In this document: positions 4,922 through 39,656 of the stretch, in pieces
Layout of the letters: the number at the start of each line of letters is the position of its first letter
Numbering within the stretch: position 1 is the stretch's first letter
NCBI GenBank assembly: GCA_020849275.1
Contig: JADLGO010000018.1
Coordinates: 1-64,000, forward strand
Direction: 5' to 3'
Source of the DNA: Chthonomonadales bacterium
GTDB lineage: Bacteria > Armatimonadota > Chthonomonadetes > Chthonomonadales > CAJBBX01
Length of the DNA stretch: 64,000 nucleotides
The notes under the pieces: generated by a model
Told to the model about the DNA's origin: nothing
Database searches by the model: none
Seen by the model: the letters and a program-made list of their open reading frames with translations, nothing else
Program-made: the position numbers and the translations under genes

Positions 4922-5944
4922 ATGGCGAGGTCAGCCGAGCGGACCCTCATCCTGCTCGTGGACGCGGCGCGGCCAGAGGCCGAGGCGATCGAGGCGGCCG
5001 CGCGGCTGGTGCGCGCCGGCCGGCTGGTGGCGTTCCCGACCGAGACGGTGTACGGGCTCGGCGCGAGCGCACTGGACGCCGGAGGGGTCGCGGCCGTGTT
5101 TCGCGCCAAGGGCCGCCCGCCGCGCAACCCGCTGATCGTGCATGTGGAGGGCGCCGCAGCCGCCCGGCGCGTGACGGCCAACTGGCCGGAGAGCGCCGGC
5201 CGACTCGCGGAGCGCTTCTGGCCGGGCCCGCTCACGCTCGTCCTGCCACGCGGGAGCGCCGTGCCGGACGCGGTGACCGGCGGCGGCGACACGGTGGCGG
5301 TCCGCGCGCCATCGCACCCTGTGGCGCGGGCGCTACTGGCCGCCGCGCAACTGCCGATCGCAGCGCCGAGCGCCAATCGCTCGCAGCGCCTCTCGCCGAC
5401 CCGCGCCGAGCACGTCGCGCGGGACCTGTTCGGCCGGGTCGCTCTCATCCTGGACGCTGGCCCGTGCCCTGGCGGCATGGAATCGACGGTGATCGACCTG
5501 ACCACGGTCCCGCCGCGCATCCTGCGACCGGGTCCCATCCTCGCGCGGGATCTCGGCGAGGAGGTCGGCGCGGTGGAGGGCCCGCCGGCGTTCGCGGCCC
5601 GGCGGGGGGCCCCGCTGAAGGGCCCCGGCATGCTGCGCCGTCACTACGCGCCGCGCACCCGGCTCGATTGCGCGCCGACCGGCGAGGCGGCCGCGCACGC
5701 CGCCGAGCAGGCCGCGCGCGGACTGAGGGTCGCGCTTCTGACGATCGGCGCGTCGCCGGCGATAGGCGATGTGCGCCGCGTCCAGATGCCGTCGGACGCG
5801 GTCCGCTACGCGGCGCGCCTCTACGACGTGCTGCACGCGCTCGACGAGGAGGGGCTCGACCGCATTGTGGCCGAACTGCCCCCAGACGAGGATGCCTGGG
5901 CCGCCGTTCGCGATCGTCTCGCGCGGGCCTCCAGCGCGCGCTAG
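4922..5944 (+). CDS. Threonylcarbamoyl-AMP synthase, Sua5/YrdC family
   Basis: Makes L-threonylcarbamoyladenylate for the t6A modification of ANN-decoding tRNAs. Residues 20-210 are the YrdC domain, with FPTETVYGLGASA, KGRPPRNPL and APSANRS as substrate-site motifs. The roughly 120-residue C-terminal part is the Sua5 extension, so at 340 residues this is the long Sua5 type rather than short TsaC. It starts 13 bases after sat and is likely co-transcribed. Confidence 0.92.
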   Translation: MARSAERTLILLVDAARPEAEAIEAAARLVRAGRLVAFPTETVYGLGASALDAGGVAAVFRAKGRPPRNPLIVHVEGAAAARRVTANWPESAGRLAERFWPGPLTLVLPRGSAVPDAVTGGGDTVAVRAPSHPVARALLAAAQLPIAAPSANRSQRLSPTRAEHVARDLFGRVALILDAGPCPGGMESTVIDLTTVPPRILRPGPILARDLGEEVGAVEGPPAFAARRGAPLKGPGMLRRHYAPRTRLDCAPTGEAAAHAAEQAARGLRVALLTIGASPAIGDVRRVQMPSDAVRYAARLYDVLHALDEEGLDRIVAELPPDEDAWAAVRDRLARASSAR

Positions 5945-36301: not shown

Positions 36302-38260
36302 ATGCACATTCCGGACTCGATGATCAGCCCCGCAACCTCGCTGGCGGCCGGCGCGGCCATGGCCCCGGTGTGGTACGCAGCCGGCCGCAAACTGCGCGCC
36401 GCCCTCTCGTCCCGTCAAGTCCCGCTCCTCTCCATGGGCGCTGCCTTCTCGTTCGTCGTGATGATGTTCAACATCCCGGTGTTCGGCGGCTCCACCGTGC
36501 ACCCGGTCGGCGCGGCGCTCCTGGCAGTCCTGCTCGGCCCCTGGGCGGCGGTGATCGGCGTGACGGTTGCGCTCACGATCCAGGCGCTCTTCTTCGCGGA
36601 CGGTGGCGTTCTGGCGATCGGCGCCAACTGCTTCACCATGGCCTTCGCCATGCCGTTTGCGGCGTTCGTGGTCTACCGGCTGGCGGCGGGACGCTCGCCG
36701 GCGGGCTCGTGGCGGCGAGCCGCGGCCGCCGGCCTCGGAGCCTACGTCGGCATCAACGCCGCCGCCCTCCTGACTGCGCTGCTCCTCGGCGTCCAGCCCG
36801 CCCTCTACCGCGACGCCGGTGGGCGCGCGCTCTACTTCCCCTTCGGCCTGGGCGTGACGATCCCCGCGATGATGGCCGCGCACCTGACGATCGCCGGCCT
36901 GGCGGAGGCCATTGTCACCTCCCTGGCCGTGCGCGGCATCCAGCGCCTCGGTGTTCCGCTCTACGGCATGGAGCCCGGCGCGACGGGCGCCGGCTCGCGG
37001 CGCGAGCTGGCCTGGGCGGCGCTCGGCGCCTTGGTCGCGCTCTCGCCGCTCGGCCTGCTGGCCACCGGCGAGGCCTGGGGAGAGTGGTCGCCCGGCGACC
37101 TGGCGCGGCGGGCGGGCTACCTGCCGCCGGGGCTCGAGGCGGCCGAGCGGCACGGGTGGAAGGGGTTTGCGTGGATGCCCGACTATCTTGGCGAGCACGG
37201 CCCCGCCTTCTACGTCATCGCAGCCCTGCTCGGCGGCGGCGGCATCGCGCTGATCGGGCTCGGCCTGGGCCGTGCGCTCGCCCGCCGCGAAGAGCCCCCG
37301 GCGGACCACGAGGATGGCGCAGGGCCCGGCAGTCCGCCCGGCGTGGCGCCCGGTGAGTTGCCAGAGTGGATGCGCGGCCCTTCGCCGAGCGACGGGGATG
37401 GGCGCGCGGCTCCCTCCCGTTCCACCCGGCGCGCGGACTTCCTGGATCGGACGCTCGCGAGCCTGGCCGAGGCCGCGCGCGACGCGCTCGTGGGCGAGAG
37501 GTGTGCGAGCCGCCCTGGCCTGCTGCAGCGCCTGGACCCCCGGGCGCGCCTCGTCGGCGTCCTGGCGCTTGTGCTGGCGGCCTCGCTGCTCCATCGCCCC
37601 GCGTCGCTCGCCGCGCTCTACCTGCTCGCTCTTCTCCTCGCAGTCAGCTCGCGCGTCCCCCTTCGGACGCTGCACAACCGCCTCTGGCTGGGCGTGCTCT
37701 CCCTCGCCGTGGTCGCGGCGCTCCCCGCCTCCCTGAGCGTGGCGACGCCGGGAACGCCGGTCGTCGTGTTGCTGCGGCGCCCGTACCTCGCCGTCACGAC
37801 ACCCGGACTGGAGCAGATGGCCCTGCTGGTCTGCCGGACGGCGGCGAGCGTCTCGCTCGTGATGCTGCTCGCGCTCACCACGCGCTGGCACGAGCTCCTG
37901 CGCGCGCTCCGAGCCCTGCTGCTGCCGCCGCTCTTCGTCGCGGTGCTCACGATGACCTACCGCTACCTGGCCGTGCTCGCGCAGGTGGCACTCGACACCT
38001 TCACCGCGCGGCGGAGCCGCTCCCTGGGCACCTCCGGAACTCGCGAGGGTCGGGGCTTTGTTGGCGGCGCGATGGCCACGCTCTTCGGCCGAACCCTCTC
38101 GCTGGCCGACGAGATTCACGGGGCGATGCGCTCGCGCGGGTGGGACGGCGAAGCGCCCCGGGCCGCGCCAACGCGGCTGCGCGGAGGCGACCTGGCCTGG
38201 CTGGGCGCCATCTGTCTGGCAGCGCTGGCCGCGCTGGGCGGCGAGCGCCTTGTGCGCTGA
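36302..38260 (+). CDS. Cobalt/nickel ECF transporter, CbiM-PDGLE-CbiQ fusion
   Basis: A 652-residue fusion. Residues 1-225 are the CbiM substrate-capture protein; the N-terminus MHIPDSMIS keeps the Met-His start that binds metal in the family. Residues about 235-330 match the CbiN-replacing PDGLE-like segment ([14 protein letters not shown], then a membrane helix). After a charged linker, residues 390-652 are CbiQ, the transmembrane coupling subunit. CbiM and CbiQ are normally separate proteins. The ATG at 36302 has AAGGGA upstream. The ATPase follows with an 11-base overlap. Likely substrate is Ni2+ or Co2+. Confidence 0.88.
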
Positions 38261-39101
38261 CGGCCGCGCGTCGCGTCCCACGGGCGATTCGGCGCTCCTG
38301 CTGGAGCGCGTCTCGTTCGCCTATCCGGAGTCCCCACCCGTGCTGCGCGACCTGTCACTCTGCGTGGCGCGCGGTGAGCAGGTGGCGATTCTGGGCGCCA
38401 ACGGAAGCGGCAAGTCGTCGCTGCTGCGGTTGCTGGACGCGCTGGTCTACCCGAGCGCCGGGCGCTTCGTCGCCTTCGGCGAAGAGGTCACGGAGGCCGC
38501 GCTGCGCGACCAGGAAACGTCGAGGCGCTTTCGGCGGCGCGTGGGCCTGGTCTTCCAGAACGCCGACGCGCAACTCTTCTGCCCAACGGTGCGCGAGGAT
38601 CTCGCCTTTGGCCCCCTGCAGCTCGGGCTATCGCCCGCGGAGGTCGAGCGGCGCGTGGCCGACGTGGCGGCAATGCTGGGTATGGGCGCGCTCCTGGACC
38701 GCGCCCCGTTCCACCTCTCGGGCGGCGAAAAGCGCAAGGCGGCCATCGGGGGCGTACTGGCGGCCAACCCCGACGTGCTGCTGCTGGACGAGCCCACGAG
38801 CGGACTGGACCCTCGAAGCCAATGGTGGCTCGTGGAGACGCTCCAGGCCCTTGGCCGCGCCGGCAAGACGATCGTGCTCGCAACCCACGACCTGGAGCTC
38901 GTCCCTCTCGTAACCTCGCGGGCCGTCATCCTGGGCGAGGACCACGCCCTTCTGGCCGACGCCGAACCGGAGGCACTGCTTGGCGACCGCGACCTGCTCC
39001 TGGGGGCCAACCTGATCCACGCGCACAGCCACCGCCACGGCACGATCGAGCACGTACACACCCACCATCACGCCGGCGACCACGCGCACGAGCACGACTA
39101 G
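38250..39101 (+). CDS. ECF transporter ATPase CbiO-like with a histidine-rich tail
   Basis: ATP-binding subunit energising the CbiM-CbiQ protein. Walker A is GANGSGKSS, the Q-loop VFQNADAQLF, signature LSGGEKRK, Walker B VLLLDEPTSGLD and the H-loop ATHD. The last 27 residues contain 12 His (HAHSHRH ... HTHHHAGDHAHEHD), suggesting metal binding or storage, more often seen with nickel. The start is uncertain; a TTG at 38250 overlapping the CbiQ stop gives 283 residues. Confidence 0.9.
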   Translation: MCADGRASRPTGDSALLLERVSFAYPESPPVLRDLSLCVARGEQVAILGANGSGKSSLLRLLDALVYPSAGRFVAFGEEVTEAALRDQETSRRFRRRVGLVFQNADAQLFCPTVREDLAFGPLQLGLSPAEVERRVADVAAMLGMGALLDRAPFHLSGGEKRKAAIGGVLAANPDVLLLDEPTSGLDPRSQWWLVETLQALGRAGKTIVLATHDLELVPLVTSRAVILGEDHALLADAEPEALLGDRDLLLGANLIHAHSHRHGTIEHVHTHHHAGDHAHEHD

Positions 39102-39184: not shown

Positions 39185-39214
39185 AAGGCCGGCCCGCGAG
39201 AGCAGACCGGCCTT
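39185..39214. terminator. Hairpin between CbiO and the zinc-ribbon gene
   Basis: AAGGCCGG (39185-39192) pairs with CCGGCCTT (39207-39214) across 14 bases. It lies in the convergent gap, 84 bases after the CbiO stop and 29 before the zinc-ribbon stop. Confidence 0.5.
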
Positions 39215-39242: not shown

Positions 39243-39455
39243 TCAGTGCCGGCGCCCGCCGCGGTAGGAGGATCGTCGGTTCTTAGGCCGCGGGGGCGGC
39301 GCGCCGACGGTGGCCATCGACTCCCGCGCGCCCTCCAGCGAGATGGCCTTACCGCACTGCGAGCAGTAGATGTTCGCCCGCCGGACGGCGGAGAACGGGA
39401 TCCGCGCGCGATAGCCGCATGCGCCGCACGTGACGACCGTCTCACCAGGTGGCAT
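39243..39455 (-). CDS. Small zinc-ribbon protein
   Basis: A 70-residue protein with two CxxC knuckles (CGAC and CSQC, 21 residues apart) forming a probable zinc ribbon, then a basic tail (RPKNRRSSYRGGRRH) that could bind RNA or DNA. The best start is ATG 39455 with GGAGGG close by; an in-frame ATG at 39467 is possible. The start is overlapped by a 17-codon upstream frame with a better ribosome binding site, so translation is probably coupled. Function unknown. Confidence 0.7.
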   Translation of the reverse strand: MPPGETVVTCGACGYRARIPFSAVRRANIYCSQCGKAISLEGARESMATVGAPPPRPKNRRSSYRGGRRH

Positions 39456-39495
39456 CGTTCCCTCCATTGCCCAGAGGCTGCTGCGGTTGATGCAT
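39442..39495 (-). CDS. Possible upstream leader peptide of the zinc-ribbon gene
   Basis: ATG at 39495 follows an excellent AAGGAG and encodes MHQPQQPLGNGGNDATW, ending at TGA 39444-39442. It overlaps the start of the zinc-ribbon gene in another frame. No start codon of the zinc-ribbon frame lies near this AAGGAG, so the site seems made for the short peptide. Short length leaves doubt. Confidence 0.5.
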   Translation of the reverse strand: MHQPQQPLGNGGNDATW

Positions 39496-39533
39496 ACTTG
39501 GGTCTCCTTCCGCGCTCTGTCGGGCACAAACGA

Positions 39534-39581
39534 GCGCGAACCTCCCGCCTGCGGTGCACGCGCAAGTACGGAGGTTCGCGC
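39534..39581. repeat. Perfect 12-base inverted repeat in the zinc-ribbon leader
   Basis: GCGCGAACCTCC (39534-39545) and its exact complement (39570-39581) flank 24 bases. It lies between the promoter and the leader peptide on the minus strand, so it would form a stable RNA hairpin about 40-90 bases into the transcript. A T tract is absent. It may be a regulatory leader structure or a protein-binding site. Confidence 0.7.
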
Positions 39582-39626
39582 CAAAGCGTGTATCTGTCGC
39601 AGGTTTCCGGTCTGGTTTCCTGGCTG

Positions 39627-39656
39627 AGTGTACCACGCCGGGGTCCCGCCGGTCAA
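39627..39656 (-). promoter_or_regulatory. Sigma-70 promoter of the zinc-ribbon leader
   Basis: On the minus strand TTGACC (39656-39651), an 18-base spacer and TACACT (39632-39627). It predicts a 5' leader of about 125 bases to the leader peptide and about 165 to the zinc-ribbon start. Confidence 0.62.

What the first reader, a model, noticed from the sequence alone, without database searches (positions are those of the whole stretch)
39442..39656. Structured mRNA leader with upstream peptide before a zinc-ribbon gene
On the minus strand a TTGACC-18-TACACT promoter is followed by a perfect 12-base inverted repeat (39534-39581), then an AAGGAG-led 17-codon frame (MHQPQQPLGNGGNDATW) whose stop overlaps the start of a CxxC/CxxC protein in another frame. 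Promoter, hairpin, leader peptide and coupled start together look like a regulated leader rather than chance. I recognise no known riboswitch class. The leader could sense zinc or translation state.
Basis: partly seen in the sequence, partly recalled or inferred. Interest (0 to 1): 0.66.

Follow-up and report, generated by a model that had tools for sequence, protein, structure and literature searches.

The report
Hairpin leader before zinc-ribbon gene
A small zinc-ribbon gene in a Chthonomonadales (Armatimonadota) bacterium is preceded by a promoter, a hairpin and a tiny upstream reading frame; the promoter and hairpin recur at the same place in the three related genomes of the order that carry the gene, but the tiny peptide does not, and nothing points to zinc sensing.

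Summary
Taken alone, the inverted repeat is near chance (about one expected per 64 kb). Its placement is not: in the other three Chthonomonadales genomes holding the gene (G003, G017, G002), a -10 box lies at -172 to -205 and a stable hairpin followed by a T-rich stretch at about -133 to -65 from the start codon. The local fold z is -3.5 or lower in all four, against 5 of 70 background starts. The core arms (GCCTC/GAGGC type) show compensatory changes, although the window copy alone does not score with the covariance model. So a conserved, attenuator- or terminator-like leader is likely. The 17-codon frame has a strong ribosome site but is not conserved, and it lies downstream of the hairpin, so classical leader-peptide attenuation is excluded by geometry. 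Zinc or other metal sensing has no support: no Rfam match, and the metal-transporter neighbours are not conserved. In relatives the gene sits beside RRM, cold-shock and fatty-acid-desaturase genes, hinting at an RNA-binding/cold context. Function is inferred, not shown.

The parts
39651..39656 (-). -35 hexamer TTGACC
   Evidence: one promoter-like site against 0.0 expected
39627..39635 (-). extended -10, TGGTACACT; counterparts at -172 to -205 from the start in the orthologues
39534..39581 (-). leader hairpin: 12-bp perfect outer stem (GCGCGAACCTCC/GGAGGTTCGCGC), 24-nt loop with an inner GCG..CGC pairing; terminator-like
   Evidence: position conserved in G003, G017, G002
39525..39533 (-). T-rich stretch after the hairpin (TCGTTTGTG), weak as a terminator tail; stronger in G002 (TTTTTTATTTT) and G003 (TTATTGTTTGTTTG)
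39504..39509 (-). Shine-Dalgarno AAGGAG of the 17-codon frame
39442..39495 (-). 17-codon upstream frame MHQPQQPLGNGGNDATW; stop overlaps the zinc-ribbon start by 14 nt; not conserved
39461..39465 (-). Shine-Dalgarno GGAGG of the zinc-ribbon gene
39243..39455 (-). 70-aa zinc-ribbon protein (CxxC-x17-CxxC, basic tail); start MPPGE conserved in G003 and G017, MPPPE in G002

Best explanation
The zinc-ribbon gene is transcribed from its own promoter with a leader of roughly 165 nt. About 40-50 nt into it a stable terminator-like hairpin forms. The likeliest role is a transcription attenuator, a partial terminator that sets how much polymerase reads through into the gene, probably relieved by an RNA-binding protein (the basic zinc-ribbon product itself, or a cold-shock or RRM protein). 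In this species the read-through mRNA also carries a strongly initiated 17-codon frame that overlaps, and could be translationally coupled to, the zinc-ribbon start. Shown: the sequence elements and the conserved placement of -10 box and hairpin in four genomes. Inferred: that transcription starts there, that the hairpin terminates, that it is regulated, what relieves it, and that the short frame is translated.
For: Promoter 1 vs 0.0 expected. Hairpin z -3.5 to -6.1 at -141..-54 in all four orthologues, against 5 of 70 background starts with z <= -3.5. Matching geometry: -10 at -172..-205, stem from -116..-133 to -65..-87. T-rich stretch after the hairpin in all four. Core arms of related sequence with compensatory changes (9 of 20 pairs on a 5-sequence alignment without the window). 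In a second family of the phylum (f15), 12 of 14 homologues have T5+ runs 30-130 nt before the start, against 5-8% of 100-nt windows. The upstream gene is divergent in the window and in G017, and about 0.9 kb away in G003, so the hairpin is not simply an upstream gene's terminator. Neighbours in relatives: RRM (G017, f15), CSD and fatty-acid desaturase (G002).
Against: A covariance model from the relatives does not find the window copy: no hit there in the 64-kb search; 9.4 bits in a 211-nt search; 6.9 bits, E 0.49 in 2 kb with the second model. The models also score unrelated terminators at about 25 bits, and A8 is fitted to the structure, so its pair counts lean towards it. No conserved alternative (antiterminator) pairing was found. 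The window's T tail is weak. Cold-shock and RRM genes of the same genome show no obviously similar leader hairpin, and the leader is single copy. Only three order-level orthologues exist for comparison.
Confidence: 0.45

Rival explanations
1. The hairpin is a constitutive mRNA 5'-structure (stabiliser, or a weak terminator without a switch), not a regulated device.
For: Very stable outer stem, weak T tail, no conserved alternative pairing.
Against: Strong T tract in G002 and T-rich tails in G003 and G017 look like terminators rather than mere stabilisers.
Confidence: 0.25
2. The promoter and hairpin define a separate small RNA of about 90 nt that ends at the hairpin; the zinc-ribbon gene is expressed by read-through.
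For: Promoter, roughly 90 nt, hairpin and T-rich stretch are the anatomy of a small-RNA gene.
Against: The stretch between promoter and hairpin is poorly conserved in sequence, unlike a trans-acting RNA; found upstream of the zinc-ribbon gene or, in one genus, mostly of a different small basic protein.
Confidence: 0.1
3. Chance: an ordinary promoter and an inverted repeat in GC-rich sequence, no function.
For: About one 12-bp inverted repeat per 64 kb is expected; the window copy does not match the relatives' covariance model.
Against: Hairpin at the same place in three of three relatives, background about 7% each.
Confidence: 0.15
4. The 17-codon frame is really the start of the zinc-ribbon protein, joined by a frameshift (programmed, or an assembly indel in GGAGGGAACG).
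For: The strongest SD in the region serves this frame; homologues of family f15 carry a short N-terminal extension before the Cys motifs.
Against: G003, G017 and G002 start at MPPGE/MPPPE, in G003 and G017 with an SD directly upstream; the window's MPPGE start has its own GGAGG.
Confidence: 0.05

Closest known systems
Transcription attenuator / 5'-UTR intrinsic terminator leaders
   Same: Promoter, then a terminator-like hairpin with T-rich tail, then a long 5' UTR and the gene
   Different: No antiterminator, ligand or protein known; T tail weak in the window copy; not in Rfam
Leader-peptide (trp-type) attenuation
   Same: Short SD-led frame in a structured leader
   Different: The frame lies after the hairpin, so ribosomes on it cannot control the hairpin; peptide not conserved
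cspA-type cold-shock leaders (Rfam RF01766)
   Same: Long 5' UTR ahead of a small, probably nucleic-acid-binding protein gene; cold-shock and desaturase genes next to the gene in one relative
   Different: No match to the model at the window leader; no cold-induction data
CxxC-x17-CxxC domain proteins (TIGR04272 / PF23477)
   Same: Same cysteine spacing; PF23477 just above its cut-off
   Different: TIGR04272 below its cut-off (27.1 vs 36 bits); function of the family unknown

Membership tests
Known riboswitch or leader families (Rfam 15) | Covariance-model match at or above gathering score | tested here: not met
   none in the leader; only a tRNA in the window
Transcription attenuator (intrinsic) | Promoter upstream and terminator-like hairpin between promoter and start codon | tested here: met
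   (by sequence pattern, not by experiment)
Transcription attenuator (intrinsic) | U-rich tract directly after the hairpin | tested here: inconclusive
   window TCGTTTGTG weak; G002 strong, G003 and G017 intermediate
Transcription attenuator (intrinsic) | Mutually exclusive antiterminator structure | tested here: not met
   no conserved alternative pairing (protein-dependent relief not excluded)
Transcription attenuator (intrinsic) | Condition-dependent read-through | not testable with these tools
   needs RNA data
Leader-peptide (trp-type) attenuation | Peptide coded before or across the terminator hairpin | tested here: not met
   hairpin 39581-39534 precedes the frame 39495-39442
Leader-peptide (trp-type) attenuation | Conserved regulatory codons | tested here: not met
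   peptide absent or unrelated in relatives
cspA thermoregulator (RF01766) | Covariance-model match | tested here: not met
   the weak hit in L005 overlaps the adjacent cold-shock gene and is below gathering score
CxxC-x17-CxxC zinc ribbon (PF23477 / TIGR04272) | Profile score above curated cut-off | tested here: inconclusive
   PF23477 27.3 vs 27 bits; TIGR04272 27.1 vs 36 bits

The most novel reading that the evidence does not exclude
A lineage-specific cis-regulatory RNA of Chthonomonadales: a GCCTC/GAGGC-stem attenuator that controls small basic RNA-binding proteins (the zinc ribbon, and in one genus a small basic protein followed by an L25-like ribosomal protein gene and, in one genome, a probable fatty-acid desaturase gene), perhaps in response to cold.
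Probability: 0.2. Interest if true: 0.5.

Novelty: new member of a known kind. Interest (0 to 1): 0.33.

Why it matters
If real, it would be a regulatory leader in a phylum with little experimental RNA biology, tied to a small uncharacterised zinc-ribbon protein that travels with RRM RNA-binding proteins. It would give a handle on how these bacteria control RNA-binding proteins. As it stands it is a plausible attenuator-like leader of ordinary kind.

Tried and rejected
Rfam search of the window, the leader and homologous loci: no family. Metal sensing by synteny: Nramp and cbiMQO neighbours are not shared by G003, G017 or G002. Covariance model without the window as a hold-out test and with two more leaders: the window is not recovered significantly, while generic terminators score about 25 bits. 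Shared leader in the genome's own RRM and cold-shock genes: none obvious. Antiterminator search: nothing conserved. A loose terminator scan was uninformative (background 0.94 per 260 nt); a strict one was too strict. Two MAFFT alignments of the hairpin put the window arm out of register and were not used for counting. No same-genus genome is held. Genome contigs gave only the same three relatives; viral contigs gave none.

Full report
What is there. The minus strand reads, in order: TTGACC (39656-39651), 18 nt, TACACT (39632-39627) with TG upstream; a perfect 12-bp inverted repeat 39581-39570 / 39545-39534; TCGTTTGTG; AAGGAG (39509-39504) and ATG 39495 opening 17 codons; GGAGG (39465-39461) and ATG 39455 opening a 70-aa CxxC-x17-CxxC protein in another frame.

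Is it more than chance? The promoter-like site is the only one in 850 bases, against 0.0 in shuffles. The hairpin folds to -36.7 kcal/mol, z -3.6, but perfect 12-bp repeats with short loops are expected about once per 64 kb at 71% G+C (G+C), so the repeat alone is weak evidence. The AAGGAG-ATG arrangement occurs five times in the window, and the other four open ORFs of at least 135 codons, so the 17-codon frame has a credible ribosome site.

Conservation. The protein is rare: 17 of 291 genomes of the phylum (16 of 291 with a profile). Names of the nearest holders place the window in or near Chthonomonadales, Armatimonadota (that Chthonomonadales belongs to Armatimonadota is from general knowledge). 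Within the order only G003, G017 and G002 carry the gene; no same-genus genome is held. All three have a -10-like hexamer at -172 to -205, and a hairpin starting at -116 to -133 and ending at -65 to -87, followed by a T-rich stretch. The window's values are -177, -126 and -78. The best local fold in -141..-54 has z -3.5 to -6.1 in all four genes; 5 of 70 other ORF starts from the window and three loci reach -3.5. For the three genes not chosen for their hairpin, that is roughly 0.07 cubed, or 4e-4, a rough figure from a small background whose ORFs were picked mechanically. The core arms are related (AACCTCC, AGCCTTC, AGCCTCC, AGCCTCT) and vary with kept pairing; on a five-sequence alignment without the window 9 of 20 pairs have changes on both sides. 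That alignment was fitted to the model, and any set of terminators would show some of this.

Limits of the homology. A model of the three relatives does not find the window leader in 64 kb. In a 211-nt search the correct site is the best match at 9.4 bits; in 2 kb with the second model it is the best at 6.9 bits, E 0.49. The models also pick up unrelated terminators. The case for the window copy therefore rests on position and core-arm sequence, not on a model score.

The short frame. Its counterpart exists only in G002, where a same-length frame ends at the same TGA but has a weak SD and a different peptide; G003 and G017 have none. It lies after the hairpin, so ribosomes on it cannot decide the hairpin's fold. 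It could only affect the zinc-ribbon start through coupling or re-initiation, and that start has its own SD.

Context. The metal-transporter neighbours (Nramp, cbiMQO) are not shared by relatives. Instead the gene is followed by an RRM gene in G017 and preceded by one in several f15 loci; in G002 it is followed by a fatty-acid desaturase gene and has a cold-shock-domain gene divergent to it. In genus g18, leaders found with the model (G029, G023) precede a small basic protein gene with an L25-like gene behind it, and in G023 a probable desaturase gene (judged by likeness to the G002 one). Most f15 homologues also have a T5+ run shortly before the start, 12 of 14. This hints at RNA-binding or cold physiology but does not show it; cold-shock and RRM genes of the window's own genome lack an obviously similar hairpin.

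Mechanism. The best reading is an attenuator-like leader with a partial terminator (confidence 0.45). No antiterminator pairing is conserved, so if read-through is regulated, a protein is the likelier agent than a switch of folds. The literature searches supplied only general background; no described leader of this kind was found there, in a search that was not exhaustive.

Noticed in passing
window 36302-38260 (+): One reading frame carries CbiM, PDGLE (below cut-off) and CbiQ domains, a fused cobalt/nickel uptake component, followed by an ABC ATPase (cbiO-like) ending at 39101.
   Followed up: partly
window 39185-39214: Inverted repeat AAGGCCGG...CCGGCCTT between the convergent cbiO-like and zinc-ribbon genes, likely a shared two-way terminator.
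   Followed up: no
whole window 1-64000, both strands: Runs of five or more T occur only twice (once per strand) in 64 kb, so intrinsic terminators with long T tracts must be rare in this 71% G+C genome.
   Followed up: partly
L044 4794-5372, L046, L042 5040-5988: The zinc-ribbon gene and an RRM RNA-binding protein gene are adjacent in two lineages, in opposite orders, suggesting a functional link.
   Followed up: partly
L053, L054 (G029, G023): Promoter, hairpin and T tract before a small basic protein without Pfam match, then an L25-like ribosomal protein gene and in G023 a probable desaturase gene.
   Followed up: partly
L043 3759-4919 (-) and about 5700-5920 (+): Fatty-acid desaturase and divergent cold-shock-domain genes flank the zinc-ribbon gene in G002.
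   Followed up: yes
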